A DNA stretch of 64,000 bases, from assembly GCF_000701365.1 (NCBI RefSeq), contig NZ_JNIK01000001.1, positions 62,001-126,000 of the forward strand. Reading direction: 5' to 3'. This DNA is from Blastococcus sp. URHD0036 (lineage in GTDB: Bacteria; Actinomycetota; Actinomycetes; Mycobacteriales; Geodermatophilaceae). The notes below the pieces were generated by a model. That model was not told the origin of the DNA, searched no databases, and saw nothing but the letters and a program-made list of their open reading frames with translations. Shown here piece by piece: positions 39,105 to 58,575 of the stretch. The translations under genes and the position numbers were made by a program. How positions within the stretch are numbered: the stretch's first letter is position 1; the number at the start of each line of letters is the position of its first letter.

Positions 39105-40232
39105 CTATTCGTCCTTCGGGTCATCGTCCGATGGGCGTCGTACTGCCCCCAGCATGGCGTCGAGGGCGCGGGCGATCTCGACGTCGCGGTCGTCCGCCGC
39201 GTGCTGGTACAGCAGGGCGGCAGCGGGGGAGGAGTGCCCGAGCCGGCGCATCAGTTCCTTGGTCGTAGCGCCGGTGGCCGCGGCGAGGGTGGCGCCGGTG
39301 TGGCGAAGTTCGTGCGGCCGGACCGCCGGCAGTCCGATGGCGTTCGCGGCGCGGCGGAAGGTCGAGTTCCAGTTGCTGCGGGCCAGGTAGCTGCCCGTAC
39401 TGGTGGAGAACAGGAGAGCGCCCGGAGCAGCGGCGACGTGCTTCTCCAGGTGCTCCTCCAGTACCGCCGTGACAGCGGCGGGGAGCGTCACGGTGCGGTG
39501 CCCGGCATCGGTCTTGGGCTCGCCGACCACCCACCGACCTTCGACGCGCCGCACGGATCGTTCGATGCGGATGCGGCCCCCGGGGAGGATGTCGGACCGG
39601 CGGAGGGCGGTGGCCTCACCGAACCGGAGGCCACCGAAGGCGAGGACCAGTAGGAGTGCCCGGTAGCGCTCGGTCCTCCGGTCCCGCCCCAGCTGCTCCG
39701 CCAGCTGCAGGGCTTCGGCCGCGGTGAGCGCGCGGGAGGGACGGGAGGCCTTGGGCGTGCCGGCGCCTCGGAGACGGCACGGGTTGGACGCGATGGCCTC
39801 GTCGGCGACGGCCACGTTGAGGATCGCCCGCAGGAGCCGGTAGGACTGGGCGCCGGCCGTCGGGCCCGTCGTTCGGCCGGCTTTGGCGTGCCAGGAGCGG
39901 ATGGCCGCGGGTGTCACCTCGTCGACGGGGACGTCCGCCCACGGCTTGGCAAGGTGGTGCTGCCATAGGCCGGCGTAGAGAACGCGGGTGCTCGAGCGGA
40001 GGTCGTTGCGGGCGAGGTAGTCCTCGGCGTAGTCGCCGACGGTCCGGGAACGGGCGCTCGGAGCTCGCCAGCTCTTGCAGAGGAGATCGGTCTGCTGGGT
40101 GGCGAGCCAGGCCCACGCGTCGGCCCTGGTGCTGAAGACTTTGGCGTGCCGCCGCCCGTCAGGGCCGCGATACCGGGCGCGGAAGGAACCGCTGGGCAGC
40201 TCGTCGACCGTCCCGAACGTTCGCTTCTCCAC
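39105..40232 (-). CDS. int: Tyrosine recombinase / integrase
   Basis: A 375-residue phage-type integrase. An N-terminal AP2-like arm-binding domain (GSFRARYRGPDGRRHAKVFS) is followed by a SAM-like core-binding domain (TVGDYAEDYLARNDL...) and a catalytic domain with Arg203 (GGLRFGEA), His307-Arg310 (RPHELRH), His333 (LGHSS) and nucleophile Tyr342 (LLYQHA). All residues needed for strand exchange are visible. It should catalyse integration at tRNA-Gly. It lies 2.6 kb from the left att, downstream of an excisionase-like gene on the same strand. Confidence 0.93.
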   Translation of the reverse strand: MEKRTFGTVDELPSGSFRARYRGPDGRRHAKVFSTRADAWAWLATQQTDLLCKSWRAPSARSRTVGDYAEDYLARNDLRSSTRVLYAGLWQHHLAKPWADVPVDEVTPAAIRSWHAKAGRTTGPTAGAQSYRLLRAILNVAVADEAIASNPCRLRGAGTPKASRPSRALTAAEALQLAEQLGRDRRTERYRALLLVLAFGGLRFGEATALRRSDILPGGRIRIERSVRRVEGRWVVGEPKTDAGHRTVTLPAAVTAVLEEHLEKHVAAAPGALLFSTSTGSYLARSNWNSTFRRAANAIGLPAVRPHELRHTGATLAAATGATTKELMRRLGHSSPAAALLYQHAADDRDVEIARALDAMLGAVRRPSDDDPKDE

Positions 40233-40271: not shown

Positions 40272-40490
40272 TCACCGCTGGCTGGGGACGCGGCCGGCAT
40301 CCACAAAGGCGTCTAGCGTCGCCCGCTCAAGGCGCACATACTTGCCGACTTTGACGTAGCTGATCCGGCGCTCCGTGATGAGCCGGCGGATGAACCGCTC
40401 GCCGGTTCCGAGGAACTCGCCAGCCTGCGCGACGGTCAGCAGCGGATCGCCGGAAGAGTGTCGTCGTTCCGTCGTCCGGTGCGCCGTCAT
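40272..40490 (-). CDS. xis: Excisionase-like helix-turn-helix protein
   Basis: A 72-residue protein from ATG 40490. LLTVAQAGEFLGTGERFIRR followed by LITERRISYVKVGKYVRLER is the MerR-like winged helix of the AlpA/excisionase family. It lies 39 bases upstream of the integrase gene and is probably co-transcribed. Such proteins bend DNA to direct excision or regulate int. A longer in-frame ORF extends upstream to 40949 but has no supported start. Confidence 0.85.
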   Translation of the reverse strand: MTAHRTTERRHSSGDPLLTVAQAGEFLGTGERFIRRLITERRISYVKVGKYVRLERATLDAFVDAGRVPSQR

Positions 40491-40585
40491 GGTTTGGAGC
40501 CTTCTCAGAGGCCTCCAGTTGTCCTCCAGCAAGGGCTGGCCCCGGCGACGGAGGGAGTCCAGTGGCAAGCCTTGGCCTCGGCTTG

Positions 40586-40604
40586 TGTCCCTTAGCGGCC
40601 CACC
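40586..40604 (+). repeat. Recurring island motif TGTCCCNNAGCGGCCCAC, copy 1
   Basis: TGTCCCTTAGCGGCCCACC lies about 97 bases upstream of the nuclease gene at 40702. Nearly the same 18 bases recur at 41614 and 44353, each in a gap upstream of another cargo gene. It is not a perfect palindrome. It may be a shared promoter or operator, or a trace of cargo exchange. Confidence 0.55.
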
Positions 40605-40701
40605 CCGGAACAGGGTTGAAGGTGGGCGGCGTGGCCTCATACGGGCGCTGCAAACAGCCCGCGGGTCGGGGGCGACAGCGTCCGCGGCGCAGACTGGCCG
40701 G

Positions 40702-41247
40702 GTGAAGCATGAGGAGCTGCGGCAGATCGCGGACCTGCTCGGGAAGCGCAACCGACTTGACGGCGAGATCGCGGCGCGCATCGGCCGACCGATGACCTCA
40801 GGCCACCTCGGGGAGTGGATCGCTGCTGAGATCTTCGATGTCGAACTCGAGCAGTCAGCGTCGGCGGCCGCCTGGGACGGCCACTTCCGCTCCGGTCCAC
40901 TCCAGGGTCGTTCGGTCAACGTGAAGTGGTACTTGCGACGGGAAGGCATCCTCGACCTGACGTCACCCCTGATGCCGCACGAGTATTTGGTGATGACCGG
41001 CCCGGCTGGCGCGGCGGCGACCTCACATGGCGGAACGCGGCCTTGGCGGATCGACAGCGTCTACCTTTTCGATGCCATCGGATTACGGGACAACCTGCTC
41101 GTGCGCGGCGGGAAGGTTGGAACGGCCTCAAGCGTCCGGGCGGAACTGTGGGCGCAGGCTGAGATCTATCCACAGCCGGTCAACCCTCGGCTGCGTGTCG
41201 ATGAGCACCAGGTGGAAGCACTGAAGCTGTTCGCGCCGGCTATGTGA
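40702..41247 (+). CDS. PD-(D/E)XK-like nuclease, small
   Basis: A 181-residue protein from GTG 40702. The N-terminal helix (LRQIADLLGKRNRLDGEIAA) is followed by GHLGEWIAAEIFDVELEQSA (Glu38), an isolated DG at 59-60 and VNVKWY with Lys75. The E-x(20)-D-x(13)-x-x-K spacing fits a restriction-endonuclease fold. I recall related uncharacterised proteins beside restriction or defence genes. It diverges from the excisionase gene. It could be a stand-alone restriction enzyme or an effector. Confidence in the fold is moderate. Confidence 0.6.
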   Translation: MKHEELRQIADLLGKRNRLDGEIAARIGRPMTSGHLGEWIAAEIFDVELEQSASAAAWDGHFRSGPLQGRSVNVKWYLRREGILDLTSPLMPHEYLVMTGPAGAAATSHGGTRPWRIDSVYLFDAIGLRDNLLVRGGKVGTASSVRAELWAQAEIYPQPVNPRLRVDEHQVEALKLFAPAM

Positions 41248-43161: not shown

Positions 43162-44286
43162 GTGAAGCGAGACGCCCAGGTTCTGCACACCAAGGCCATT
43201 GCCTCGATGCGGGTCGCCACGGCGGCGTTCAACTCACCGGATGACGTCGGCCGGGTGACACAGGTGCTCCTTTCCCTCCAGCACTCGTTCGAGATGTTGC
43301 TCAAGGCCGCGCTGGTGCAACAACGAGTGCGGGTCTTCGACAAGGAGTCGGGCCGGTCCATCGGGATGGACAAGTGCATCAACCAGGCGCAGAACAACAC
43401 CGTCATCAAGCTGACCGACGACGAGGCGGGCACCCTTCGCACCATCGACGCGATGCGGGACGACGAGCAGCACTGGTTCGCCGAGGTGTCGGAGCAGATC
43501 CTCTACCTGCACGCCCGAGCTGGGATCACCCTCTTCGACGAGTTGCTGGACCGTGTGTTCGGGCAGCGACTGGCCACCCACCTGCCCCTCCGGGTCTTAC
43601 CCCTCTCGACGGACCCACCACGCGACCTCCATCTCCTCCTCGACGAGGAGTACAGCGCCATCGCCGACCTACTCAGGCCGAAGCGCCGGATGACCGAGCC
43701 CGCGAAGGCCAGAATCCGCACTCTGCTCGCGATGGAGGCTCACGAGGAGCCGGACACCCGCGTCTCCGACAAGGACGTCAAACGAGTCGTCAAGGGGATC
43801 CGAGCGGGCAAGACCCGAGCCGAGGTCTTTCCCCGGCTGGAAAACCTGGCCTCGGAGGTGATCGGTGATGGGCCGAACGTGACGGTGCACTTCAGCAAGA
43901 AGGGCGAGGGCGCTGCCGTGCACTTCGTCGCCGAGGACGCCGACGTTGAGTCGGCCGCGATCCGCGAGGTCGACCTCAACGCTCGGTTCCACCGCTCGAA
44001 GGCTGAGCTAGCCGACGCGCTCGGGGTGAAGCAGCACATCGCCACCGCACTGAGGGACCACCTCGCGGTCGACCAGGATCCCCGTTGCTACCGGGATACC
44101 AAGTACAACAACTCCGTCCTCCGCAAGTACTCGGACCGGGCCTTCGCCTCGATGCGCGAGGTCATCAAGGCCGGCAATGCCGAGGCGGTGAGGTCGGCGC
44201 ACAACCCGAACAAGGGCACGCGCCACGAGCGTTGCTCGATCGAGGGCTGCAAGGCCTGCACGAACCCCGCCCCGACACACAGGTGA
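43162..44286 (+). CDS. DUF3644-like protein with a HEPN-type RX4H motif
   Basis: A 374-residue protein. The N-terminal region VTQVLLSLQHSFEMLLKAAL looks like the first helices of a HEPN-type fold, and AMRDDEQHWFAEVSEQILYL carries Arg99-x4-His104, the RX4-6H pattern of HEPN ribonucleases. I recognise the overall sequence as DUF3644-like. The C-terminus has CSIEGCKAC, a possible metal site. GTG 43162 is taken. HEPN proteins often cleave RNA to halt growth on infection. No antitoxin is adjacent. Confidence 0.65.
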   Translation: MKRDAQVLHTKAIASMRVATAAFNSPDDVGRVTQVLLSLQHSFEMLLKAALVQQRVRVFDKESGRSIGMDKCINQAQNNTVIKLTDDEAGTLRTIDAMRDDEQHWFAEVSEQILYLHARAGITLFDELLDRVFGQRLATHLPLRVLPLSTDPPRDLHLLLDEEYSAIADLLRPKRRMTEPAKARIRTLLAMEAHEEPDTRVSDKDVKRVVKGIRAGKTRAEVFPRLENLASEVIGDGPNVTVHFSKKGEGAAVHFVAEDADVESAAIREVDLNARFHRSKAELADALGVKQHIATALRDHLAVDQDPRCYRDTKYNNSVLRKYSDRAFASMREVIKAGNAEAVRSAHNPNKGTRHERCSIEGCKACTNPAPTHR

Positions 44287-44352
44287 CTCGGCGAACTAGT
44301 ACCCCGGCCAACTGCGTTCGCCCCGCCTATGCAGCGTGGGCGCGGGGCTGCG

Positions 44353-44370
44353 TGTCCCCAAGCGGCCCAC
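44353..44370 (+). repeat. Recurring island motif, copy 3
   Basis: TGTCCCCAAGCGGCCCAC lies 48 bases upstream of the KAP NTPase start. It shares 16 of 18 bases with copies at 40586 and 41614. Confidence 0.55.
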
Positions 44371-44418
44371 CTAAGAGACGGTCCACCGCTCAGACTGAAA
44401 CTTGGAGAGGATGTGCCA

Positions 44419-46515
44419 ATGAGTGAAGCCGCCTGGACCGACGACCCGTTGGACTCTTCCAGAGGCGACACGTTAGGGCGACGGCCGTACGCTCACCGGG
44501 CTGCCGAACTCATCCGCGGCACCCACTCCTTTGACTCCAGCATTGTCTTTGGGTTGAGCGGACCGTGGGGAAGCGGCAAGACGTCTCTCATCAATATGAT
44601 CGTCGAGCATCTGACTGCTCAATCGAACTGGGCGATCGCTCGCTTCACGCCCTGGGCCACGAGCGACATCACTGGGCTGCTGGAAGAATTTTACTCCTCG
44701 CTCTCGCAGTCGCTCCCAAAGAAGAAGGGGCGCCAAGTTAGACGAGCCCTCGGCGTGGCTGCGCGAGTCGCTGCCCCAGCAGCTAACCTGATCCCGATCG
44801 CTGGCGCTTCCGCGGCCGAAGCCGGAAGGATTGTCGCTGACAGGCTGACCAAGACGCCACCGTGGGATCTTGCCTTCTCTGAGGCGTCACAGGAACTGCG
44901 CAAGCTGGAGACCCCGATACTCGTCGTAGTCGACGACATTGACCGTTTACACGTCGACGAGTTGATGACCCTCCTCAAAGTTGTTCGACTCCTTGGACGA
45001 TTCCCGGGCGTTCAGTACCTCTTAGCATACGATGATGAAACTCTCTTTCGTACTTTATCATCCACCTCCACGGTTAGTGCCAACGATGGGTCCGCAGAAC
45101 GATATATGGAGAAGATTGTTCAATATCCTCTCCTGGTTCCGCCTCTGCTCCATCACCAGCAGCTATCTCGCTTGAATGACGGAATCGCACAAGTCGCTCG
45201 GCGCACGGACTCCGGAGAGGATCGCTTGAGTGCCCTCGTCGACTGCTTCGTCGCACTTCTGCGAACACCTCGAGCCATCGATCGGTACGTCGCTCAGCTG
45301 CGGCATCACCTCCCGATGGTCCCTCCGGATGAAGTCGACGACGCTGACGTCCAACTGCTGACCTTGCTTCGCGTCAGTTTTCCGAGCCTCTTCACTGCGC
45401 TACCTCGGTATCGACGCCAGCTCCTTGATGGGCACACAGGCGAGATGGAGCGGGGTGGCCCGTCCGTCAACTTCGTTCGCTTCCAACTGGACCCACTCCT
45501 GTCCCTAGTCCCAGACATGCACCGAGACGTCGTTGAGCAGCTCCTGGTCTCTCTTTTTCCGAAGACAAAGGACGAACGAAAGTTTGCCGTCTACGGGAGC
45601 CACACTGGGCGCGGCGTGGCTAATGAGAAATACTTCGATCGGTACTTCGCAATGGGGATTCCCGCGCATGACGTCAGCGATGCAGCGGTGCGAGCGGCCA
45701 CGCGTGCAGCATCTCAGGGCGACGGCGCAGCGTTGAGCACACTTCTCCAAGACGAAGATCGAGAGCGTCAACTCCTAGTCTTGAGCAAAGCGACTAACGA
45801 TGACAATCAACCTGCCATCGACTCCGAGCGACTCCAACTCGCCCTTGTCGTTGCCGACCTGGTGAACCAGGCGCCGGACGAGGACGGAAGCCCATTCGGA
45901 ACCCGAGAGGAACTGCTTGGATGGCTATCGCGCCAAATAGCAGACCTCGATCCCGATACGCCGGCACAACGGATCGTTGACCTTCTCCAGACCCTTTCGT
46001 CGGGCGCGCTCAGGACGCGCGCTTGGCGCAGGGTCGAGTATGCCCTCGAAAGACGCCCGTCCGACCGTTTACCTAAATGGTCGACCGAAGTGGCGGAGAG
46101 CCTTGCCAGTGAAGCTGTGTCCCACTTTGTGGAGCACTTGCTGCAGGCGGATTCGGCGCCAACGGGGTCTCAAGTGGGATATGAACTTCACTTCGCCCTG
46201 CGCCATGGTCGAGCAAGTGAACTCCGTGCCAAAGTGCAGGAACTGCTGACAAGTGAAAAGATTGACCTTTCGGTTCTGGCTTCGCGGCTCGTTTCTGCGC
46301 ACACGATCGTTGGGATCAGGCCAAACTGGGAACTGTCGACTGACTTCGATCAAGAGACATATGACCTTATTGCACCGCCTGGTGACAACCCTTGGTACTC
46401 GGAGTCGCGGGAAGAAGTTGACACTCACGACCTGAGCTGGGCCAACCGCAGGCGATTCGTCGTCGGCCGAGTCTCCCCGCCATCAGCAACGGAAGGGACC
46501 CCGCAAGAGGAGTGA
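44419..46515 (+). CDS. KAP-family P-loop NTPase
   Basis: A 698-residue protein. ATG 44419 has GGAGAGG eight bases upstream. Walker A is GPWGSGKTS (48-56). Walker B ILVVVDDIDRL starts at 167, followed by LMTLLKVVRLLGRFPGVQYL and LAYDDE, all typical of KAP NTPases. A weakly hydrophobic stretch (APAANLIPIAGASAAEAG, 119-136) lies between them where KAP proteins carry membrane helices; here it is short. The C-terminal 400 residues are helical and unrecognised. KAP NTPases occur in several anti-phage systems as sensors or motors. Confidence 0.82.
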   Translation: MSEAAWTDDPLDSSRGDTLGRRPYAHRAAELIRGTHSFDSSIVFGLSGPWGSGKTSLINMIVEHLTAQSNWAIARFTPWATSDITGLLEEFYSSLSQSLPKKKGRQVRRALGVAARVAAPAANLIPIAGASAAEAGRIVADRLTKTPPWDLAFSEASQELRKLETPILVVVDDIDRLHVDELMTLLKVVRLLGRFPGVQYLLAYDDETLFRTLSSTSTVSANDGSAERYMEKIVQYPLLVPPLLHHQQLSRLNDGIAQVARRTDSGEDRLSALVDCFVALLRTPRAIDRYVAQLRHHLPMVPPDEVDDADVQLLTLLRVSFPSLFTALPRYRRQLLDGHTGEMERGGPSVNFVRFQLDPLLSLVPDMHRDVVEQLLVSLFPKTKDERKFAVYGSHTGRGVANEKYFDRYFAMGIPAHDVSDAAVRAATRAASQGDGAALSTLLQDEDRERQLLVLSKATNDDNQPAIDSERLQLALVVADLVNQAPDEDGSPFGTREELLGWLSRQIADLDPDTPAQRIVDLLQTLSSGALRTRAWRRVEYALERRPSDRLPKWSTEVAESLASEAVSHFVEHLLQADSAPTGSQVGYELHFALRHGRASELRAKVQELLTSEKIDLSVLASRLVSAHTIVGIRPNWELSTDFDQETYDLIAPPGDNPWYSESREEVDTHDLSWANRRRFVVGRVSPPSATEGTPQEE

Positions 46516-46943: not shown

Positions 46944-49900
46944 TCAGCTTCCTCCGAGCCCCATCCCGAGAGTCCATAAGGGTCCGGTCTGCTCGATGAA
47001 CGGGTTGCTGGCCACCGCTCGCGGGTCTACTCGGCGAAGCGACTCGATGGCGTCGGTCAGGCTCTCCGCCGGCAGTTGCCCGATGGCCTGCAGGGCGAAA
47101 GATGCGACGAGAACGTTGCGTCCAACACTGTCGCGTTCCCCCGCGGTCAGTTGGGAGAGGCGGCCCGCTGCGGCGGGGAGGTCGTCGGGGTCGAAGAACC
47201 AGGGGGATGGTCGAGTTGGTTGGCTGCCGGCGATCGTGGCGAGCATTGCCCGTCGAGCCGCCGGGTCGCGGCGGAGGCGATACAGCAGGGGAAGGGTGAG
47301 CTGCCACAGGGAGTCCCGGAGATGCTCGGTTCGTCGGGGATGGAACAGGCCACCGACGAGAGCTGGGAGCTCGGCTGCGGGACCGGCGCCGAAGCAGAGC
47401 GCCGCAACTTCGACCCAGTTGGCCGGCGGAGGCATCTCGGGAGGCCTCTCTCGGAACCAGTCGGACAAAGTGGCGCGCCAGTACCGCGTCTGGGCATCTT
47501 CAGGGAAGAGCAGCGTGAACGCCGTCCGGCGGACCGACCGGTGCGCGTGGGACCAGGCGCTCGCATCGATCCAGGCGTCGCTGTCCTGGTCGGGGATGAG
47601 TGCCCGACGAATGTCGTTCATGCTTGCGGGGCGCCGACCCTGCTCGTCCAGAAGGCGCTGCAGCGCCCACCGGTTGACGCGTTGATGTCGGTCCCCGTCG
47701 CTGGCGGAGCCGTCTTCGGTCGCGCGAAGGACCCACTGCACCGTGGCGGTCACCGGGCTGGCGTCTTGCTGCCGCCAATCGATCACGGTGGGCGCCAGTG
47801 ACAGTTGCTGTCGGGTCTGCGCGTCGGCGAGTAGGTGTGGCCCTGCGGCGCTGCCGGCGTCAGATTCCGCGGTGCCGTTGAGGTGGGCGCTGAGAAGTTC
47901 TTGGATGTCTGGGCTCTGGTCGGCCGCCAGGGCCAGGGATTCGAGCGCCCGGAGCAGGCGAGGTTGCACAGGCTCCCTATCGATGCGCCCGCCGGTGAGT
48001 CGCGTCAACAGCGTCGACCCGAAGTGCTGCGTCAGTCGGGCCCAACTGTCGGCGATCAGCCGGACCAGCATCTCGTCCGGATTGCCGAAGATGTCGTGTA
48101 GCCGTACGCCGGGTTCGGTCGGCTCGCCGATCGCTTCTCGAAGCCCGTCGATCAGGTCCAGCCGTTCCAGCAACAGCATGCTGATCCAGGCGTTCTGCCG
48201 GTCCTCTTCGAACGTCGGCCCGTAGCAGCACAGATCGTCCCGGACCTCCTGCTGCCACCGGGCGAGTTCCGGAAGGAGCTCGGCCGAAGTCCCGAAGTTG
48301 GCGGCTTGATGCCGCAAGAGGTGCAGGGTCATTCCCACGGTAACGGTGCGGCGGACACCGTTATCGGGGTCGGTCTTCCATGCGGCGAGGACGTCGCCGA
48401 GTTCGGTGGGAGTCAGACTGCTGCGGCACAGCTCGTGAGCGAGGACCTCGCGGAGTTCGGCGTCCAGAAAGCCCATCAGGTTCATAGCTTCGTCGACGAC
48501 CTGCGGCGATCGCGCGCAGGGGCGCTCGATGTGGGCGCGCAGCGCCGCAGAGTGGATGGTGTCCGGAATGCCGTCGGTGACGTGCCGGTTGCTGCGCAGC
48601 GCGTCCAGCGCGTAGTCGACGGTCAGGTCAGGCCACGTGTAGATGATGTCCGCGATGTGCCAGCCCAGCCCGGAGGTAGGCACCCGCGTGCAAGAGGCGC
48701 ACACATCTGTCGGGCGGTATGCCGCCAGGATTTCGCGGGCATGGCTGCGCCGCTCGTCAGCCGATAGCCCGACGTCGACCTGCGCCGAATGGGTGGCGGT
48801 GGGAGAGGTGCTTGCGGCCTCGCTGATGAGATGCCAGGCGCTGGCCACCGATTGGGCCAAGACGACTTGGTCCTGCCCGCGAATGGGGCTGTCGGCCTGG
48901 TGCGAGGACAAGAGCAACCCGAGAATGCGTTCGAAGCCGGCTCGGAGGCCAAGGACGTCGAGGGCGATCGGAGACAGCGCAGCAGCCTTGCTGTCGTCGG
49001 TGAGTCGGGCGATGAGCTCGGCTCGGACGGCCTCGTCGTGCCCGAACTGATCGTTCAGCTGTGCCGCGATGCCCCACGGACGCCAGGCGTTGAGGCCCTG
49101 CAGCAGGACAGCGCGGCGCCTGTCCGGCGGCAAGACGGCGGCCGCGGACAGCCAATCAGTCAGGGCCAGACCGGCGGCTTCTGCCTCTAGCCGCTGGCCG
49201 AGGGCGTCCTGCAAAGGGACGTGATCACGCCACTGCTGCGGAAGAGCGCTGAGGTTGCTTAGCTGCAGCAAGCCGCCGTGTTCGCGGCCAAGCTCGGACA
49301 CGAACCAATCGCGGACGCGGTCGTCGTCGGCGAGCGGGCCGCAGGCCAGCGCCAACGCCAGCGGGCGATTCCCTCCCCGGCGCCCGTTGGTGCGCAGCGT
49401 GTTCAGCACGTCGTCGGTGATCGCAGCACGCGTTGGGGGCTCGGCGTCCTGCACGACGCGGGCGACCGCCTCGTGAAGCAAGCTTGTCGCCGTTTGCTCG
49501 GGCCACCAGTACTCCTGCTGCAGGTGATCGAGCAGCCAACGGGTCTCCTCGGGGGTCAGAATGCTGCGCGCAGGGGCATCGGGAGTTCCGGAGACCGCCA
49601 GGTACAGCGCCGTCGTGCGGATGGCGAACCGCCGCTGGCGTCGACCCCAAGCCAGGTGCTCGTAAGTCTCTGGCGCGTGCGGCCATCCCAGGCCGAGAGC
49701 CAGGAGCGCAGCGGCCTGAGCGCTGACCGTGGGGCCGTCCCGGATGACGTGGAGCAGCGCCGTCAGCGCCAGGCGACGAACGGCGTCCGAGGGTGCCGTG
49801 CGGTCATCGTCGCTGGACGTGGCGGTCGGTTGCCTCGGGGGTGGAGGCGCCGGCCCGAACCGGCGGGCGATCGCCTCGGCGGCGGATGCCCGAACGTCCG

Positions 49901-52646
49901 GCGCGGTGGACCGTAACGCCCAGAGCATCACGGGCAGGACGCGGTCGTCGGGCAGTGGCAGGCGGGCCAGAGACCAGACAGCGGGCCCGGGAAAGGGGCG
50001 CGTCGCACCGAGCCACCGCTTGAACGTGGGAAACAACCGGGTTCGCCGCGACGGCTCGGCGCAGGCTCCGACGAGTGCCGTGACGAGCGCCGCCCGATGC
50101 TCCAGCCATGGCGAGGTGTCCACCTCGTCGATCAGCAGGTCCAGAAGGGCGGCTGTTCGGTCAGCGGGCAGTACGACGTCGGCGGCCAACGCGTTGGCGA
50201 TGAGTTCTTGACTGGCATGCCGCTGACGGACGTCGTCCGGCCACCGCAGCTGGCTGTCGCGGTCGTCGGTCCTGGCCAGCGGTCCATCGAGCAGGGCAGC
50301 GACGTGGTCCGGGTCCCGGGATCCTGCCAGGGCGGAGAGAAGAACGTCCTGCCATGCCGGGTCGGTGTATCGCCTGGTGAACACGGCTAACTGCTCGGCC
50401 GGGTCCTGTCGGGCGAGGTGTTGGCCGGCGAGGTGGTCGAGGACGACTCGATGCAGGAAGCCGACATGATCGGCGCCTTGCGACACGACGAGGCCGAACT
50501 CGTCTTCGGCCATCGTGAGGGCGGCGGCGGCCATTCGGTGAGACTCGGCTGGCGGGTACCCGAGGATGTCGTCGTCGGCGAGCGCTGCCTGGATGCGCTT
50601 GGTCATCTGGCGGGTGGGCAGGGGCCCGGTGTGGCCGTCGGCCCGGAGTGAGTAGGCGACCGCTTGGAAGACGAGCTTGAAGTCGGCGTCGGCCAGTGGA
50701 CGTTGTCCGGCGCGGGATGCGCGTCGCCGCATGTGCGGATGTCGCACGACGAGCAGTTCAACAATGTGGGTGTAGAGCTCATAGCGCTTGCGTGGGAGGG
50801 GTTCGCCCCGCCAACGTTCGGCCAGCAGAGCCAGGAACAGTGGGGTCCGCGTGAGGTCGGACAGCTCTGGAACCGTCGACAGTTCCGCGATGAACGAGTC
50901 CACGCCAGGCCGCGGGTGCTCGCCCGATGTTTGGCGCTGGGGGCTGGGTGGCTCGGCTGCCTCTGCCTGCTGAGGTGCCTGGGGGTGACGGTCGTCAGCC
51001 AAGTACTGCGCGGCCATATGCCGACGTTGCTTGTCGGTTAACGGCGCCAGGTCACCGCGCCGCCATGGCGACGCCGAGGCCAGCCGCGTCACCGCGTAGG
51101 GGCGCGAGGAGAGAACGGCTGCCGCTCTGGTCCGGTTGAGGAAGGTCTCGATCGCTCCGAGCGCATGATTGGCGGCGTCGAGTGACTTCCACTCGTCAAT
51201 GCCATCGATCAGCAGCACGAGGCGGTCATCGTCCAGGGCCTGCTCGACCAGCGGCCACAACGCCGCAGCGTCCTGACTGCTGAGCCAGGAGCGGATGGCT
51301 GACTGGAGGGAGTTGGTGTCGGCGTCATCGAGGTGGCGCGTCAGGAAGCCGAACGGCAGCCAAATTGGCAGCCGCCCACCGTGCTCCTGCTGCAGCCGGG
51401 TGGAGTGCGGATCGGACGACAGCAGGTCTCGAGCCACGAAGCGCAGCAGGCTGGACTTGCCGGAGCCGGGCCCACCGACGACGAGACTGCGAGGCGCCCG
51501 GGACAGCCAGATGTCCGCCTGCTCCCGATAGGCGCCGTCGCCACCCGATGAGCTTTCGGTGAGCAGCAGAGCGGCGGGGCGAAGTGTGCGGCGGGGGCGG
51601 TCCAGGCCCGCCGCAGGCGTCGATGTGGAGGGGGCGTCGGCCGCGGCCCCCGTCCCCACCCGGCGGGGATCGGTCTCGGCGGCGCCGGATGGGCCGAAGC
51701 CGAACCGCGCGCCTGGGAGCAAGGGGCCGCCGCTCTGGTCACCTACGCTGCCAGGCGCGCCCAGCGTTGACCCAAGCAGCGAGTCCTCGCCTGGCGTGAT
51801 GTCCAAAACGATGAACCGATCGGCGTCCACGGCTGCGTGCTGAGGCGGGCGGACCGCGTTCTGCGCGTCGAAGGTTGCCCGGTACAGGCGGTCCAGGTCT
51901 GCGCGCAGCTGACTGGCTTGGTCGAAGGTCAAACGAGTCCGCAGCTGGGTCACGGCTTCTGGTCCGCAAAACGTCTCCACCCAATGCCGGCCGAAGAAGT
52001 CGTCGACCAGCTGAGGACGGCGCCTGAGCATCGTGAAGATGTCCTCAGCGCCCCACGGGATGAAGGTGATGCCTTCTGCGGCCAATCTCTGCTCGGCCGC
52101 GCGGAGAGCATCGTCCAGGCGGGTGTCGGTCAGGTCGAAGGTCGTGGCGTAGTAAAAGGTGCGGGTGCTGGCCGGCCAGCTGCCGGCCAGGAAATCGTCG
52201 ACGGCACCTGTGATGTCGCTCGAGGAGAGCTTCTGGACGCGCCGGGACTGTAGGACCGCGTACAGGCGCCGGGCCGTCAGTGTGTCGGTCGCCTCGTAGT
52301 CGGTTGATCGTGAAGGGGGCAGCATCCGGGCATAGACGTCGATGCCCTCCTGCTCCTGCCCGGCGGTGCCGTACAGCTTCGTGCGCACCACCGAGGCTTG
52401 ACCGGCCAGCAGCTGCACGAACAGGCGCTCGACGTTCTGCCACGACAGGTCGAGCAGCGGCAGTGCAGTCGCCTTGGTGACGACGGGAGGCTGAGTGGGC
52501 TGTTCGTCGGGCGGGGTCCACAACCATGCCTGGGTGGCGTTTTCGTGCAGGGCGTTTGGGGCCGCGCTGTCCGCAGCTCGTGACGCGGATTCGGTGGCCG
52601 CCCCGGCGGTGGAGCTCGGGCACGGGTCGTGGCCCTTATTGCTCAC
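46944..52646 (-). CDS. Giant nuclease-NACHT STAND NTPase (Avs/NLR-like)
   Basis: A 1900-residue protein with GTG start. Residues about 60-230 look like an Mrr-type nuclease module: GQEQEGIDVYAR (97-108), LYAVLQSRRVQKL (128-140), FYYATTFDL and ITFIPWGAEDI. The usual Q-x-K appears as Q133-S-R135, so the catalytic Lys may be replaced by Arg. A NACHT core has Walker A GGPGSGKSS (391-399) and Walker B LVLLIDGIDEW (476-486). The remaining 1300 residues are helical HEAT/TPR-like repeats that would sense a ligand. The layout equals Avs-type anti-phage sensors that recognise viral proteins and then cut DNA. It diverges from the AlbA_2 gene. Confidence 0.85.
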   Translation of the reverse strand: MSNKGHDPCPSSTAGAATESASRAADSAAPNALHENATQAWLWTPPDEQPTQPPVVTKATALPLLDLSWQNVERLFVQLLAGQASVVRTKLYGTAGQEQEGIDVYARMLPPSRSTDYEATDTLTARRLYAVLQSRRVQKLSSSDITGAVDDFLAGSWPASTRTFYYATTFDLTDTRLDDALRAAEQRLAAEGITFIPWGAEDIFTMLRRRPQLVDDFFGRHWVETFCGPEAVTQLRTRLTFDQASQLRADLDRLYRATFDAQNAVRPPQHAAVDADRFIVLDITPGEDSLLGSTLGAPGSVGDQSGGPLLPGARFGFGPSGAAETDPRRVGTGAAADAPSTSTPAAGLDRPRRTLRPAALLLTESSSGGDGAYREQADIWLSRAPRSLVVGGPGSGKSSLLRFVARDLLSSDPHSTRLQQEHGGRLPIWLPFGFLTRHLDDADTNSLQSAIRSWLSSQDAAALWPLVEQALDDDRLVLLIDGIDEWKSLDAANHALGAIETFLNRTRAAAVLSSRPYAVTRLASASPWRRGDLAPLTDKQRRHMAAQYLADDRHPQAPQQAEAAEPPSPQRQTSGEHPRPGVDSFIAELSTVPELSDLTRTPLFLALLAERWRGEPLPRKRYELYTHIVELLVVRHPHMRRRASRAGQRPLADADFKLVFQAVAYSLRADGHTGPLPTRQMTKRIQAALADDDILGYPPAESHRMAAAALTMAEDEFGLVVSQGADHVGFLHRVVLDHLAGQHLARQDPAEQLAVFTRRYTDPAWQDVLLSALAGSRDPDHVAALLDGPLARTDDRDSQLRWPDDVRQRHASQELIANALAADVVLPADRTAALLDLLIDEVDTSPWLEHRAALVTALVGACAEPSRRTRLFPTFKRWLGATRPFPGPAVWSLARLPLPDDRVLPVMLWALRSTAPDVRASAAEAIARRFGPAPPPPRQPTATSSDDDRTAPSDAVRRLALTALLHVIRDGPTVSAQAAALLALGLGWPHAPETYEHLAWGRRQRRFAIRTTALYLAVSGTPDAPARSILTPEETRWLLDHLQQEYWWPEQTATSLLHEAVARVVQDAEPPTRAAITDDVLNTLRTNGRRGGNRPLALALACGPLADDDRVRDWFVSELGREHGGLLQLSNLSALPQQWRDHVPLQDALGQRLEAEAAGLALTDWLSAAAVLPPDRRRAVLLQGLNAWRPWGIAAQLNDQFGHDEAVRAELIARLTDDSKAAALSPIALDVLGLRAGFERILGLLLSSHQADSPIRGQDQVVLAQSVASAWHLISEAASTSPTATHSAQVDVGLSADERRSHAREILAAYRPTDVCASCTRVPTSGLGWHIADIIYTWPDLTVDYALDALRSNRHVTDGIPDTIHSAALRAHIERPCARSPQVVDEAMNLMGFLDAELREVLAHELCRSSLTPTELGDVLAAWKTDPDNGVRRTVTVGMTLHLLRHQAANFGTSAELLPELARWQQEVRDDLCCYGPTFEEDRQNAWISMLLLERLDLIDGLREAIGEPTEPGVRLHDIFGNPDEMLVRLIADSWARLTQHFGSTLLTRLTGGRIDREPVQPRLLRALESLALAADQSPDIQELLSAHLNGTAESDAGSAAGPHLLADAQTRQQLSLAPTVIDWRQQDASPVTATVQWVLRATEDGSASDGDRHQRVNRWALQRLLDEQGRRPASMNDIRRALIPDQDSDAWIDASAWSHAHRSVRRTAFTLLFPEDAQTRYWRATLSDWFRERPPEMPPPANWVEVAALCFGAGPAAELPALVGGLFHPRRTEHLRDSLWQLTLPLLYRLRRDPAARRAMLATIAGSQPTRPSPWFFDPDDLPAAAGRLSQLTAGERDSVGRNVLVASFALQAIGQLPAESLTDAIESLRRVDPRAVASNPFIEQTGPLWTLGMGLGGS

Positions 52647-52797: not shown

Positions 52798-54087
52798 GTG
52801 ATCGACACGTCCCTGTTCACCGTCCCGGCCGAGCGCATCGACGCACCCCTGCTCATGGCCTTCCTTGCCCAGCAGGTGACCGAGCGGCTCTTCACCGAGA
52901 GCACGACGCTGGAGTTCAAGCGGCAGAGCAGTAGCGACAATGTCGTCCGCGCCATCTGTGCCATGGCCAACACCTCGGGCGGCATCGTTTTGGTCGGCGT
53001 CGACGAAAGAACACCGCGTCAGGCGCCGGGTGTCGAGCCGGACGAGCACGGCAAGTTGGTGGACCGCTGCCGACTTGCTTTGGAACCGACCTTCGTGCCC
53101 GAGATCATTCCGGTCCCGCTCGATGCCGAGCGAGTGGTTCTCGTCGTGCGGGTGCAACCGCAGCTGGCTGATCGGCCGGTCTTCTGCGGGGGAGCGGTGT
53201 GGGTTCGGGTGCCCGGTCAAACGGTGCGGGCGAGCCGCCCGCAAGTGATGGACATGTTCGCCCGGCAGACCGCGTACGGCACGGTGCCGGCCGGGATGGC
53301 TTCGGCCGCCCTGGTCAGCACGTTCTATCCGCCGACGCCGAACGGAACGACCGACGACGCAGCCCTACCGAAGCTTCGGCTGCGGGCCGCCGCAGGCGTT
53401 CTTCTTCGTCCGGAGGCCCACGCTCACATGATGATTGGCTCGGCGCTGAAAGACCGTCTCCGCGACGCAATCGACGCTTCCGATGCGGTCCGCTGGGCTG
53501 CCGGCAGGAACCCTCCAGCGGCGAGGAGCTGGTGGGAGCCCGAGATCGTGCGGGCGACCGAATGGCGGGAGCGGCGGCTCCTGAACCGGCGCTGGGGACC
53601 GGACAATGTCTCGGTCGCGGTGCATGTCCGCCTTGAGGCCGCTCGGCTCGCCTGGTCGGTTGACGTGGACATTGCGGGGTCCCAGCCCCAGGACGCCGCG
53701 GAGGCCGATCTGGTGGTTCCGGTCGAGCATTGGTTGCGTGGTTGGACCGAGCTCGCTGCCCTCGTAGGGACGGTGCTTCCTGATGCGGTGTCCGAGGAGA
53801 TCCTGTCCCCGCCCCTGACTCACGCAGGCATCGTGCTGTGGGTGGTCTCCGGTTGCGCCGACCTTCGTCGCGCCCTCGGCCTGCACCGCCTGTCGTATGA
53901 CCTCGACCGGGGAAACCGCACGGCCGATTGGCGGATCGACCTTGATGGTCCCGACGAAGTGCCGGCAGCCCTCTCAGCGTGGCTGCAGCGGTTGCTGCTC
54001 GACGAGGGCGTCACCGATGGCGACCGAGTGGCGGTCTCGTTTGTCGAGCAGGCGTTGGGCACGCAGTCCGGCGCGGCCGGGCTCTGA
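52798..54087 (+). CDS. AlbA_2 (Schlafen-like) domain protein
   Basis: A 429-residue protein with GTG start. The N-terminal domain reads ESTTLEFKRQSSSDNVVRAI then CAMANTSGGIVLVGVDE (about 34-70): Glu39, Lys41 and N-T-S-G-G are the AlbA_2/Schlafen core. The next 100 residues (EIIPVPLDAERVVLVVRVQP...) complete it. The C-terminal 250 residues are unassigned. AlbA_2 proteins bind or cleave nucleic acids and occur in defence islands. It is divergent from the STAND gene (151 bases) and upstream of the reverse transcriptase. Confidence 0.75.
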   Translation: MIDTSLFTVPAERIDAPLLMAFLAQQVTERLFTESTTLEFKRQSSSDNVVRAICAMANTSGGIVLVGVDERTPRQAPGVEPDEHGKLVDRCRLALEPTFVPEIIPVPLDAERVVLVVRVQPQLADRPVFCGGAVWVRVPGQTVRASRPQVMDMFARQTAYGTVPAGMASAALVSTFYPPTPNGTTDDAALPKLRLRAAAGVLLRPEAHAHMMIGSALKDRLRDAIDASDAVRWAAGRNPPAARSWWEPEIVRATEWRERRLLNRRWGPDNVSVAVHVRLEAARLAWSVDVDIAGSQPQDAAEADLVVPVEHWLRGWTELAALVGTVLPDAVSEEILSPPLTHAGIVLWVVSGCADLRRALGLHRLSYDLDRGNRTADWRIDLDGPDEVPAALSAWLQRLLLDEGVTDGDRVAVSFVEQALGTQSGAAGL

Positions 54088-54294
54088 ACCGGCTGTGCCC
54101 TCGTAAGCAGGCGTGAGGTGGCCAACTCCGCCGCCGCCGACCAGGTCTCGGGTCGTGGGCCAGTCGCGGCCACAGCGCCGCGTTGCGTCGGTGCAGGCAG
54201 GACCTCTTGGACCGGGCGGCGGGGGCACCCCGGTGGCGCAACGTCCAATTGTTGCCCGGGTGGAGTGGTGCGGCCGCTATGTTGCCCGAAGGTG

Positions 54295-54322
54295 CTCATG
54301 CCGAGCCGCAGCTCGGCATGAG
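54295..54322. repeat. Perfect 11-bp hairpin upstream of the reverse transcriptase
   Basis: CTCATGCCGAG (54295-54305) and CTCGGCATGAG (54312-54322) are perfect inverted repeats around a 6-base loop. It lies 25 bases upstream of the preferred GTG start of the reverse transcriptase (54348) and encloses the alternative ATG 54318. It could be part of a non-coding RNA, an operator or an attenuator. Defence-type reverse transcriptases frequently have an RNA gene just upstream. Confidence 0.65.
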
Positions 54323-54347
54323 GGTCAGGCGGTGGTTGGAGGTGAAC

Positions 54348-55997
54348 GTGGCTGCACCGAAGGTGTGCGCGGCATTGGCGGGACGAAACCTGGAGGACGA
54401 TCTCCAGCGGGTCGGACGGACGAATGACATGCTTCCGCCGCGCGAAGACGACAAGGTCGCCGGCCGCATTCCGAAGCGGTTTGTTCAGGCACTCAGCCTG
54501 AATGTGAGCGAAAACAGCTACGAACCGGCACCGGCTTCGTTCGTCTACGTGCCTAAGACTCGCTTCGCCACCAGGCCGGCGGCGCTACTCACTCTGGCGG
54601 ACCGGGTTGTCTTTGAAGCTCTACTGGAGCCAATGCGTCCAAAGATCGAGGCGTACCTCGTCTCGGATGGTGTCGTCTTCTGGCCCCGTGGCAGCGTCAC
54701 TGAGAAGCGATGGGATGAGTTCGAAGCGGCCCCAGTTGCAAGCGGCGGTGGTCACGTCGTCGTCGCTGATGTGGCCGGCTTCTACGAGTCCATAGATCAC
54801 GCGCAACTCCGGCGCGTCTTAGTCAGCGCCGGAGTAGCAGTCGCCGACGCGGAAGCGCTCGAAGAGTTCCTGCGCTCAGTAATGCGGTCGAGCAAGGGTT
54901 TGCCACAGGGGGTAGCAACCTCCGACCCGCTCGCAACGATCTACCTTGCGGCTGCGGACGCCGCAGTTCGTCGCACGGGTGCCGGCTACTGGCGGCACGG
55001 CGATGACATCCGGATGGCAGCGTCGACCTTCGCGGAAGCCAGGCGTGCCATCAACACACTTGAGGCCGCCTTGCGAGACTCCGGCCTGCTTATGAACGCC
55101 GCAAAGCTCCGTGTCTTGAGGTTTGCGACTTACGCTGAGCACCAAGCCGATCTGGAGAAGGCTAGGGATGACTTTCGGACACGGCTACTGGAGGCGCGAA
55201 AGGAGGCAATTCGGAACTCCGAGGAGCCGGAGGAGTTGGAGGAGTTGATGCATGCTGCCAACGTCGACGAGGACATGCAGTGGGGGTTTTGGTACCACCA
55301 CAACATTGACATAAATGAGGTCCTGGAAGCGCTTAACGAGCACATCGCGCCGTCGCTCCTCGAGGTGCAGCGAGAGATGTTCAAGGACGCCATGCGGCGG
55401 CGACCCGGGACACCGGACGGGCTCAGTCGAGAGCTTTGGCACGCGCGCGTCGCATACTGTCTACGGCGCTTCGCGGCTGCGAGATCGAACGCGGCGCTGC
55501 CATACGCCGGCGACTTGCTGGTTCGATATCCCGAGGAGACTCAGTTCGTAGCGAGTTACCTGCTGTCCCTAGTCGACGCTCAGCCCTCGCGTGTTGCGCA
55601 GGCAGTTGAGCACGGGCTCGACAACTCTGAGTTCCTTCTGGGGTGGCAGAGAGGATGGCTTTACCGCGTTCTAAGCCGCGTCGCGCATCAGGTAACCGAC
55701 GGCACTTTGACAGAGGCTTCTCGCGTCATGCGGTCGCAAGACCATGACTGGTTGGCACGGGTAGAGGCCGCGCGCCTCCTGGGCGTCCGAAGTCGCTTGA
55801 CGGCAGACGATGTCAACAGCCTTTACCGAAACGCACCGTCGGCCTTTAGGACTGATCTGTTCGCGATTGCTGCCGAGCTAGAAGATGCCGCCCCGTGGGC
55901 GCAGGCATTCCTGGATGGCGCTAAGCAGGATGCACTTGCCGCAGTCGTGATCGACGCAGTTCGCGCGAAGCAAGCCCAACGGTCGAGCTCCAGCTGA
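54348..55997 (+). CDS. Reverse transcriptase, unknown-group/defence (UG/DRT, Abi-like) type
   Basis: A 549-residue protein. GTG 54348 has GGAGG five bases upstream; ATG 54318 lies inside a hairpin. Fingers region: FVYVPKTRFATRPAALLTLA then DRVVFEALL. Motif A is DVAGFYESIDH (141-151), motif B GLPQGVATSDPLA (184-196), motif C HGDD (217-220) in place of the common YxDD. Motif D/E-like sequence follows (LLMNAAKLRVLRF). No maturase (intron) domain is present; the C-terminal 250 residues are HEAT-like helices as in Abi/UG enzymes. A helical partner gene follows 175 bases on. An anti-phage role is likely. Confidence 0.85.
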   Translation: MAAPKVCAALAGRNLEDDLQRVGRTNDMLPPREDDKVAGRIPKRFVQALSLNVSENSYEPAPASFVYVPKTRFATRPAALLTLADRVVFEALLEPMRPKIEAYLVSDGVVFWPRGSVTEKRWDEFEAAPVASGGGHVVVADVAGFYESIDHAQLRRVLVSAGVAVADAEALEEFLRSVMRSSKGLPQGVATSDPLATIYLAAADAAVRRTGAGYWRHGDDIRMAASTFAEARRAINTLEAALRDSGLLMNAAKLRVLRFATYAEHQADLEKARDDFRTRLLEARKEAIRNSEEPEELEELMHAANVDEDMQWGFWYHHNIDINEVLEALNEHIAPSLLEVQREMFKDAMRRRPGTPDGLSRELWHARVAYCLRRFAAARSNAALPYAGDLLVRYPEETQFVASYLLSLVDAQPSRVAQAVEHGLDNSEFLLGWQRGWLYRVLSRVAHQVTDGTLTEASRVMRSQDHDWLARVEAARLLGVRSRLTADDVNSLYRNAPSAFRTDLFAIAAELEDAAPWAQAFLDGAKQDALAAVVIDAVRAKQAQRSSSS

Positions 55998-55998
55998 G

Positions 55999-56040
55999 GC
56001 GCCAGTTCTGCGGCGCGAGTTCTGCGGCGCCAGTTGGCGG
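55999..56040 (+). repeat. Three tandem 14-bp repeats after the reverse transcriptase gene
   Basis: GCGCCAGTTCTGCG, GCGCGAGTTCTGCG and GCGCCAGTTGGCGG follow one another directly after the reverse transcriptase stop codon. Units 1 and 2 differ at one base, and unit 3 diverges at its end. It may be a simple tandem duplication, a terminator or part of a structured RNA. Confidence 0.6.
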
Positions 56041-56172
56041 CTCCGTAAGCGCGCGTCTTGACTTGAGCACTCTCCCTAGTCCTCGGACGAATAGAGCGGG
56101 CTTCTCACGGGGATCGTGCGCAGGGTGGGAAGTTCAGGCGGACAGAGCCCATAGGACGACGGGGACAGGGGA

Positions 56173-57951
56173 ATGTCGAGAGGACGTGCCACGCGGCGAC
56201 CGACCAGGCCGCGGACCGCCCGCAGGGCTGCCACACGGGCCGCGCTCAAGGGCGCCGACCGCGCCGAGCGACGTGGCCGGCAGGTCCCGCCGACCGTCGA
56301 GGGATTCAGCACCGCTCTGGCCAACCGCGGGCATGACGGCGTGGCGGAGGCGCTCATCTCGCGACACAACCAGCGCATGCAGCGCCTACAGGAGGCCGGC
56401 GAAGTCCTCCAACAGTCTGCCCTGCCGGCCCTGTCGGGCTACTTGCCGATGCAGCTCGTGGCCCAAGAGCTCGGCGCCCATCCCGGACGGTGGCCCGCCC
56501 ACCCCGGCAGCACGTGGCCGGACCACCTGGCGTGGGGGTTGGACAGCGTCGCGGCCGCCGTCCGGCTCATGCTCGCCATTCAGCCGGTCGGCGCAGCGGT
56601 GCTCTCCCGCACGCAACTGGAGCGCTGGTCGTCGAACCTGCAGTTCAACAGCGAGGTCGCCCAAGTCCCGGGCGAGGACACTGCCACCTGGCTGACGCGC
56701 CTGTGGACATCGCCGGGCGTATCGCTGACCCCCCGCTCCTCGAGCGTGGGCGCACTGTTTGCCGACCTCAGCGAGGTGTTGCACGGCCGTGGGCCGCTCA
56801 TGCCCCTGGTCTGGCTCGACGTCGCCGACGTCACCGCACTCCCGACCGGCGACCAACTTCGGTTGATGGACACCATTACTGACGCTCAGATCGTCAGCTT
56901 GACCCAGCTGCGCAACTGCCTTGCCACCGCAGCCGAGGAGAAGGACTGGCCGGTACTCGCGGAGACCGCCGCGCGCATCAGGCTCATCGAGCGCGCCCAC
57001 GGCTGGACCCCCAACATCGCCCCGACCGTCGTCCCGCTCATCCCCAGCCACTTCGCCGCTCTGGAAGGACCGCTTGGGGCGCTCGCGACCGGCCACGCAA
57101 AGGCTATGCACGCGCTGCGCCACGTTCACGACCCCGAGTACCCGTCCGAGATGTGGCCGCTGTTCGCGTTCGGTCAGCAACGCTTCCGCGCGCTGACCAC
57201 GGCGAGGAGGGCGTTCGAGCGCGAGCGGGACCTTCTGGGTGAGCGCTTTGGCGAGCACGGCATCGAAGAGCTGGCAACCGAGGCGGTCCTGTCGGGTGAG
57301 ATGGCCGCGATGCTCGCGGTCTGGCTGCGCGAGCGCAACACCGTGCCGCTGGCGGCAGACGCGTTCGCGGTCTGCGCCTCGGCATTGCGGTCAGCGCACT
57401 GGCTGTGGCTTGAGGATGACGACCGAGCGATGGGATGCCTGCGGTGCGTCATCGAGCAGCTCGCGCGCGCTCGGACCTGGCGGGTCAAGCCGGAACGGGC
57501 GGCCAAGATTGAAGCCAACCTGAACGCCACTCCACGGGACTGGATCGAAGCCTCCGGATGGCGGCGCCTCGGCCTGATGAACAGAGCCCTCGGCGAGTTC
57601 GCGCATGGCTCGACCAGTGTGGACTGGTCTCTTGCCCGCGACGCGCTCGTCGCGCTGCAATCCGATCCCGAGGACGAGCTTGCGCGGTTCACCGGTCGAA
57701 GCCACGCCCTTTCCGCGCTCATCTTCATGGTCTCGGTGGAGTGCTCGGCGTGGGTGGATGAGTTCAGTGCCGAGCTAGGGGAGGCGTACCGCAAGGTCAT
57801 CCGCATCAACGACGACCAGGCCAACCGGGCAATCGAAGCGCTGATGAACCGGGCGTGGAACGCGCGAGACACCCCGTTGCGCGCCCCGCGGACCACCAGT
57901 CCTCACGACGACCGCGGAGCAGCGCCCGACGGGTCGGGCGACGCCTCCTGA
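56173..57951 (+). CDS. Helical protein of unknown function downstream of the reverse transcriptase
   Basis: A 592-residue protein from ATG 56173 (CAGGGG just upstream). The first 45 residues are strongly basic and arginine-rich (MSRGRATRRPTRPRTARRAA), suggesting nucleic-acid contact. The rest is mostly alpha-helical with no motif I recognise. No transmembrane helix or P-loop is visible. It is in the same orientation as the reverse transcriptase, 175 bases downstream, and nothing else separates them, so it may be its partner or effector. The assignment rests on context only. Confidence 0.6.
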   Translation: MSRGRATRRPTRPRTARRAATRAALKGADRAERRGRQVPPTVEGFSTALANRGHDGVAEALISRHNQRMQRLQEAGEVLQQSALPALSGYLPMQLVAQELGAHPGRWPAHPGSTWPDHLAWGLDSVAAAVRLMLAIQPVGAAVLSRTQLERWSSNLQFNSEVAQVPGEDTATWLTRLWTSPGVSLTPRSSSVGALFADLSEVLHGRGPLMPLVWLDVADVTALPTGDQLRLMDTITDAQIVSLTQLRNCLATAAEEKDWPVLAETAARIRLIERAHGWTPNIAPTVVPLIPSHFAALEGPLGALATGHAKAMHALRHVHDPEYPSEMWPLFAFGQQRFRALTTARRAFERERDLLGERFGEHGIEELATEAVLSGEMAAMLAVWLRERNTVPLAADAFAVCASALRSAHWLWLEDDDRAMGCLRCVIEQLARARTWRVKPERAAKIEANLNATPRDWIEASGWRRLGLMNRALGEFAHGSTSVDWSLARDALVALQSDPEDELARFTGRSHALSALIFMVSVECSAWVDEFSAELGEAYRKVIRINDDQANRAIEALMNRAWNARDTPLRAPRTTSPHDDRGAAPDGSGDAS

Positions 57952-58510: not shown

Positions 58511-58575
58511 TCTGACCTGCCGTTATGCGTGGAGCGGGTGACCGGGATCGAACCGGCATGGCCAGCTTGGAAGGC
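58511..58575. repeat. Right attachment site within tRNA-Gly
   Basis: 58526-58575 is the 50-bp repeat identical to the left site, covering the CCA end, T-arm, variable loop and 3' side and loop of the anticodon arm of the intact tRNA. The adjoining 58511-58525, inside the island, repeats the host flank with two changes, so integration restores both the tRNA and its 3' flank. Confidence 0.9.

What the first reader, a model, noticed from the sequence alone, without database searches (positions are those of the whole stretch)
54088..57951. Reverse transcriptase with an upstream perfect hairpin, tandem repeats and an unknown helical partner: candidate new defence RT system
The RT has motifs A (DVAGFYESID), B (GLPQG) and C (HGDD instead of YxDD), no intron maturase domain and a HEAT-like C-terminus, which places it with unknown-group/defence RTs. 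A perfect 11-bp hairpin sits at its start, three 14-bp tandem repeats follow its stop, and a 592-residue protein of no known family with an arginine-rich N-terminus lies 175 bases on. I know no named DRT type with this partner. Established knowledge: many defence RTs use a nearby non-coding RNA template.
Basis: partly seen in the sequence, partly recalled or inferred. Interest (0 to 1): 0.85.

Follow-up and report, generated by a model that had tools for sequence, protein, structure and literature searches.

The report
Solo UG22 reverse transcriptase, mobile island
This is a bacterial reverse transcriptase of a named but little-studied antiviral-type group, carried as a single gene among other defence genes on a mobile DNA element; the neighbouring unknown protein does not look like its partner, and the usual partner of its group is missing.

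Summary
The sequence features are real: an RT with HGDD at motif C, a perfect hairpin (12 bp, not 11), three 14-bp tandem repeats, and a 592-aa orphan 175 bp on. The RT matches the named group UG22 (PADLOC E 8e-113), on a sub-branch of it. Seven of 7 'core' UG22 loci examined have a downstream HEPN partner gene; 0 of 5 window-branch loci have it. Window-branch RTs read HGDD (4 of 5) and carry 23-64 extra residues between the palm and an invariant Tyr-Leu in the helical C-terminus. The 592-aa protein lies near none of the 4 other window-branch RTs, and its 3 relatives have no such RT in the DNA held. No conserved or significantly structured flanking RNA was found. RT and 592-aa gene are cargo of a 22-kb element bounded by a 50-bp direct repeat in tRNA-Gly, with an integrase and PDC-S19, PifA-like, NACHT and Schlafen-type genes. 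Best reading: a single-gene, Abi/DRT4-like, probably template-independent, protein-primed DNA polymerase that works without HEPN. The biochemistry is inferred; the structural support is weak.

The parts
36487..36536 (.). attL: 50-bp copy of the 3' part of tRNA-Gly
   Evidence: exact direct repeat of 58526-58575
39105..40232 (-). tyrosine integrase of the element
   Evidence: Pfam Phage_integrase E 9.7e-20; 84% identical DNA in the same-genus genome G629, which also holds the tRNA-Gly flank
40272..40949 (-). helix-turn-helix protein (excisionase or regulator, inferred)
   Evidence: Pfam HTH_17
43162..44286 (+). DUF3644 / PADLOC candidate defence protein PDC-S19
   Evidence: E 1.8e-152
44329..46515 (+). 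KAP P-loop NTPase, PifA-like
   Evidence: PifA E 8.3e-56
46944..52646 (-). 1900-aa NACHT NTPase
   Evidence: Pfam NACHT
52798..54087 (+). Schlafen AlbA_2 protein
   Evidence: Pfam SLFN_AlbA_2 E 2e-14
54295..54322 (+). perfect 12-bp inverted repeat, 26 nt before the likely RT start; leader structure or operator (inferred)
54348..55997 (+). UG22-type RT, 549 aa, window sub-branch; catalytic Asp 141, 219 and 220, HGDD, Tyr404 in the helical domain
55994..56035 (+). three 14-bp tandem repeats overlapping the RT stop
56173..57951 (+). 592-aa orphan, separate cargo, family of 4 known here
58526..58575 (.). attR: 50-bp repeat within tRNA-Gly (58530-58603, minus strand)

Best explanation
The RT is a stand-alone member of a sub-branch of the UG22 reverse transcriptases, carried as cargo of a 22-kb tRNA-Gly integrative element with several defence genes. 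Shown: UG22 relationship, sub-branch, absence of the HEPN partner, no recurring partner gene, no conserved flanking element, mobile defence setting. Inferred: it is an Abi/DRT4-like DNA polymerase that primes on one of its own tyrosines (best candidates Tyr404, invariant in 12 of 12 aligned UG22/UG23 RTs, and Tyr262 at the palm-helical junction) and makes non-templated DNA when a phage trigger appears. The extra helical residues between palm and helical domain may replace an assembly role that the HEPN partner could have in core UG22 (in AbiA the fused HEPN domain mediates dimerisation and is needed for polymerase activity: PMC11077055, passages).
For: PADLOC RT_UG22 E 8e-113, next UG21 8e-51. 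Five window-branch RTs group together at 94/94. HEPN partner 7 of 7 core versus 0 of 5 window-branch loci. Window branch: motif C HGDD in 4 of 5; palm-to-Tyr spacer 148-169 residues versus 105-125 in core and 90-91 in UG23. In G661 the RT stands alone between genes that I recognise by eye as valS-folC and ndk-rne. Weak: Foldseek top 8 chains are DRT6, Abi-P2, UG15/DRT4. RT-alpha-repeat class 1 enzymes studied so far make DNA without a nucleic-acid template (PMC13174585, passages). Neighbours PDC-S19, PifA-like, NACHT and SLFN; att repeats and integrase.
Against: No activity or phage data. The RT half of the model is poor (pLDDT 23-56) and Foldseek TM-scores are only 0.20-0.25, one hit below E 0.001; DRT9, an RNA-templated enzyme, is at rank 10. 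By sequence the best solved relatives are group II intron RTs (E 4e-22), then UG15/DRT4 (7e-11) and DRT9 (1e-8), and the nearest numbered profile is Drt8, whose mechanism is unsettled (PMC13213688). I could not read the paper that assigns UG groups to classes, so UG22's class is not established here. Tyr404 may be structural. Only five window-branch loci were found, and the support of 94/94 is just under treekit's star level.
Confidence: 0.5

Rival explanations
1. An RNA-templated RT: a non-coding RNA in the 260-nt leader (with the 12-bp hairpin) or in the 175-nt spacer (with the tandem repeats) is the template, as in DRT2, DRT9 and DRT10.
For: A 260-nt intergenic leader with a rare perfect hairpin; leader fold z -1.93, 9 of 200 shuffles as good. 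L039 also has a 12-bp hairpin, but at -243 to -207.
Against: No Rfam match. Pairwise flank comparisons gave nothing below E 0.009. Hairpins of 8 bp or more are absent upstream of L036 and L037. Fold z for 9 flanks between -1.52 and +0.47 in a second test; downstream spacer z +1.22. L036 leaves only 75 nt between its upstream ORF and the RT. With 4-5 diverged loci the test is weak.
Confidence: 0.2
2. RT and 592-aa protein form a two-gene defence system.
For: Same strand, 175 bp apart, both inside the element.
Against: 0 of 4 other window-branch loci hold the 592-aa gene; its 3 relatives (60%, 32%, 30% identical by tblastn) have no RT of this kind in the stretches held (flanks 1-10 kb). G264, the one genome with a weak match to both queries, proved to be a match antisense to another gene plus an RT with FADD that I read as group II intron type. 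GC differs: RT 0.621, 592-aa gene 0.696.
Confidence: 0.06
3. A UG22-HEPN system whose HEPN partner acts from elsewhere in the genome, or a decaying one that lost it.
For: 7 of 7 core UG22 loci have the HEPN gene.
Against: No HEPN match in the 64-kb window at E 1e-3 by tblastn; best profile score 10.7 bits, E 0.059, taken as chance. The RT frame is intact with all catalytic Asp, and the whole sub-branch lacks the partner. The rest of the genome was not searched for it.
Confidence: 0.12

Closest known systems
UG22 RT with RTasHEPN (PADLOC PDLC03760 and PDLC03820)
   Same: full-length match to the UG22 profile, RT plus helical C-terminus, invariant Tyr-Leu
   Different: no HEPN gene, HGDD instead of YADD/FNDD/YNDD, 23-64 more residues between palm and the Tyr-Leu, about 20-25% identity to core members
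AbiA (RT, helical domain, fused HEPN)
   Same: RT plus helical-repeat architecture
   Different: no HEPN domain; sequence only remotely related
DRT4 (UG15) and DRT6, single-gene template-independent DRTs
   Same: single gene with RT and helical C-terminus; among the best structural matches (weak)
   Different: different UG group; no activity shown here
DRT2, DRT9 and DRT10 (RNA-templated DRTs)
   Same: defence-type RT with a non-coding leader
   Different: no conserved RNA found; no SLATT gene as in DRT10 recognised in the window's element

Membership tests
UG22 RTs (PADLOC RT_UG22) | best and full-length match to the UG22 profile | tested here: met
   E 8.1e-113, residues 19-547 of the ATG form, next profile 8e-51
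UG22 RTs (PADLOC RT_UG22) | intact RT catalytic aspartates | tested here: met
   D141, D219 and D220 invariant in A6, 12 of 12 rows
UG22 with RTasHEPN | downstream RTasHEPN gene | tested here: not met
   7 of 7 core loci, 0 of 5 window-branch loci
Numbered DRT1-DRT9 | best PADLOC match is a Drt model, or NCBIfam Drt model above cut-off | tested here: not met
   best Drt model is Drt8, E 8e-30; NCBIfam Drt3a, Drt5, Drt2, Drt4 far below cut-off
Class 1 UG RTs (Abi-like) | RT followed by alpha-helical HEAT-like repeat domain | tested here: inconclusive
   helical repeat predicted with good confidence, but the RT part is poor and TM-scores low
Class 1 UG RTs (Abi-like) | protein-primed, template-independent DNA synthesis | not testable with these tools
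   needs purified enzyme
RNA-templated (Class 2) UG RTs | conserved structured ncRNA in cis | tested here: inconclusive
   none found, but only 4-5 diverged loci
RT plus 592-aa protein system | recurrent gene pair | tested here: not met
   no second case among the loci examined
UG22 phylogenetic class (1, 2 or 3) | place in the published UG tree | not tested
   the paper is not held

The most novel reading that the evidence does not exclude
The window RT represents a HEPN-free, self-sufficient sub-lineage of UG22 in which a helical insertion between palm and helical domain took over the assembly role that a trans-acting HEPN protein plays in core UG22, with an HGDD active site that may give a DNA product unlike those of known DRTs.
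Probability: 0.25. Interest if true: 0.55.

Novelty: new variant of a known kind. Interest (0 to 1): 0.36.

Why it matters
Most UG groups have no known DNA product. A group with one branch that always has a HEPN gene and another that never does, in the loci seen here, gives a natural comparison of what the HEPN protein does: assembly factor, as reported for the fused domain of AbiA, or toxin. The finding also corrects a tempting but unsupported operon (RT plus 592-aa gene) and shows that the genes are separate cargo of a mobile defence island.

Tried and rejected
Rejected: RT plus 592-aa operon. Rejected: Rx6H of the 592-aa protein (NRALGEFAH) as a HEPN motif, because the relative L071 has Tyr in place of Arg. 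Rejected: G264 as a case of co-occurrence. Led nowhere: viral contigs with RT alignment, 592-aa protein and hairpin pattern (no relatives, no relatives, no match); phage records (one RT of 24% identity, none for the 592-aa protein); a scan of genome contigs found only two loci, one close (L039, 46%) and one remote; closer relatives for a covariance model were sought in the genera of G661 (168 genomes) and G419 (7) and the family of G340 (14) and gave only the loci known already plus one RT fragment in G074; comparison of that fragment's upstream DNA with L046 showed no convincing similarity in the part of the output that I printed. Structure of the 592-aa protein failed (mean pLDDT 40.7), so no fold search was made with it. 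'UG22' and 'RTasHEPN' were not found in relevant papers of the held library, which does not hold the main UG/Abi survey; novelty in print is therefore not established. RT-like loci fetched but not classified, and not in any count: L072, L077 (TIR-RT fusion by Pfam), L078, L079, L040.
Full report
Observation. The RT ends at 55997; its likely start is a GTG at 54348 behind GGAGGT (by eye). The hairpin is 12 bp, 54295-54322, and the 14-bp repeats lie at 55994-56035. In 5 shuffled windows the count of perfect stems of 10 bp or more was 1, 6, 0, 2 and 1 against 8 real ones, and of 12 bp or more 0 in each against 3 real ones. The 592-aa ORF begins 175 bp after the RT stop.

What the RT is. PADLOC's best model is RT_UG22 (E 8.1e-113), then UG21 (8e-51), UG20, UG23, UG32, UG19, UG9 and Drt8 (8e-30). 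Pfam sees RVT_1 only. In solved structures, by sequence profile, group II intron RTs come first (4e-22), then UG15/DRT4 (7e-11), DRT9, Abi-P2, Drt3a, AbiK, DRT6 and DRT2.

Relatives. A UG22-model search of 396 genomes of the phylum gave 98 with some match, but only 4 with E below 1e-70 (G316, G000, G340, G078); the rest I take as general RT matches, though G306, G042 and many others were not classified. In 298 genomes of the order the window RT found G419 and G661 as near relatives and G429, G475, G655 as remote ones; in 394 genomes of the class a 5-row profile found G419 again among 14. L039 (Prauserella isguenensis) and G419 have the same upstream sequence where I compared them and are counted once. 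Thus 5 window-branch loci (window, L039, L046/G661, L036/G340, L037/G078; 28-46% identical to the window RT by tblastn) and one fragment in G074, and 7 core loci (L035/G316, L047/G655, L048/G475, L049/G429, L076/G750, and Rhodococcus plasmids L095 and L096). L048's RT is interrupted.

Two branches. A tree of 11 RTs (L048 left out, UG23 as outgroup) puts the 5 window-branch RTs together at 94/94, while the core group is weakly supported (56/31) and long branches are flagged. Motif C is HGDD in 4 of 5 window-branch RTs and VGDD in L037; core ones read YADD, FNDD or YNDD. The stretch from Lys253 to Tyr404 has 148-169 residues in the window branch, 105-125 in the 5 core RTs aligned and 90-91 in 2 UG23 RTs. 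Of 19 invariant columns among 12 RTs, the only ones in the helical C-terminus are Tyr404-Leu405.

Partner genes. A small ORF follows the RT in core loci: tblastn and a profile find it in 7 of 7, four of four scanned hit PADLOC RTasHEPN (E 1e-32 to 2e-39), and the six aligned carry RNAV[AV]HG. An ATGA overlap of RT stop and HEPN start is seen in L047, L049 and L095, and coordinates imply it for L076 and L096. No window-branch locus has it at tblastn E 1e-3; in the profile search only the window gave a chance-level score (10.7 bits, E 0.059, on the opposite strand). So the association UG22-HEPN is already catalogued, and the window branch lacks it. Other neighbours of window-branch RTs differ from locus to locus and match no PADLOC model.

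The 592-aa protein. Relatives: Rhodococcus fascians D188 plasmid (2 records of one plasmid among 72,556), G596 (60%) and G576 (32%) among 249 genomes of the order; none in 396 genomes of the phylum except the window's own and a chance match in G264; none in 50,697 phage records. In G576 the gene follows an ORF that I read as an integrase. None has a window-type RT in the DNA held: 12 kb for G596, with only 1 kb on one side; 18 kb for G576; 4 kb either side for the plasmid. It is best seen as a separate mobile-island gene of unknown function; its structure could not be predicted.

Flanking RNA. No Rfam family at gathering score except two tRNAs, and only chance-level matches between 54000 and 56300. 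The leader folds with z -1.93, or -1.12 by a second shuffling method; the spacer z is +1.22. The other flanks tested lie between -1.52 and +0.31, and no flank similarity stands out (best E 0.009 in a two-sequence comparison). The hairpin is not at a matching place in L039, L046, L036 or L037. It may be an operator or leader hairpin; this is inference.

Setting. A 50-bp perfect direct repeat links 36487-36536 to 58526-58575 inside tRNA-Gly. Between them lie a tyrosine integrase, HTH_17, PDC-S19, a PifA-like KAP NTPase, NACHT, SLFN AlbA_2, the RT and the 592-aa gene. A same-genus genome, G629, has the integrase DNA (84%) and the tRNA-Gly flank (90%) about 10.5 kb apart with no other match to the window between them, as expected of a shared site with changing cargo.

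Mechanism. Published class 1 UG RTs with helical-repeat domains make DNA without a nucleic-acid template and prime on tyrosine (PMC9508834, PMC13174585, PMC11077055: passages read; PMC13314766: passages; PMC13213688: first part of two). In AbiA the fused HEPN domain makes the dimer and is needed for polymerase activity (PMC11077055). By analogy I propose a self-sufficient protein-primed polymerase. The class of UG22 was not established here, and the Foldseek support is weak. Confidence 0.5 covers the single-gene reading with this chemistry; the family and the setting are much firmer.

Noticed in passing
L035, L047, L048, L049, L076, L095, L096: Core UG22 RTs carry a downstream gene of the PADLOC RTasHEPN type with invariant RNAV[AV]HG, often with overlapping stop and start.
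   Followed up: yes
36487-58575: 22-kb integrative element in tRNA-Gly with 50-bp att repeats and several defence-type genes; a same-genus genome has a related integrase and flank with other cargo.
   Followed up: partly
46944-52646: 1900-aa NACHT protein; its N-terminal 350 residues look to me like a nuclease-type domain (by eye, no tool hit).
   Followed up: no
37262-38859 and 41769-43445: Low-GC ORFs inside the element; 37939-38859, 41769-42761 and 42561-43445 have no Pfam, PADLOC or PHROGs match, and 37262-37996 was scanned with PADLOC only, without a match.
   Followed up: partly
L073:2065-4360 and L074:4814-6896: UG23 RTs followed by a small two-helix membrane-type protein; L074's has a weak SLATT_4 match (E 0.0012, below cut-off).
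   Followed up: no
L077:5606-7624: TIR domain fused to an RT in one ORF.
   Followed up: no
L046, about 110 nt upstream of the RT: Two direct copies of a 20-bp repeat, each holding the palindrome ACGAGCTCGT, read by eye; possible operator sites.
   Followed up: no
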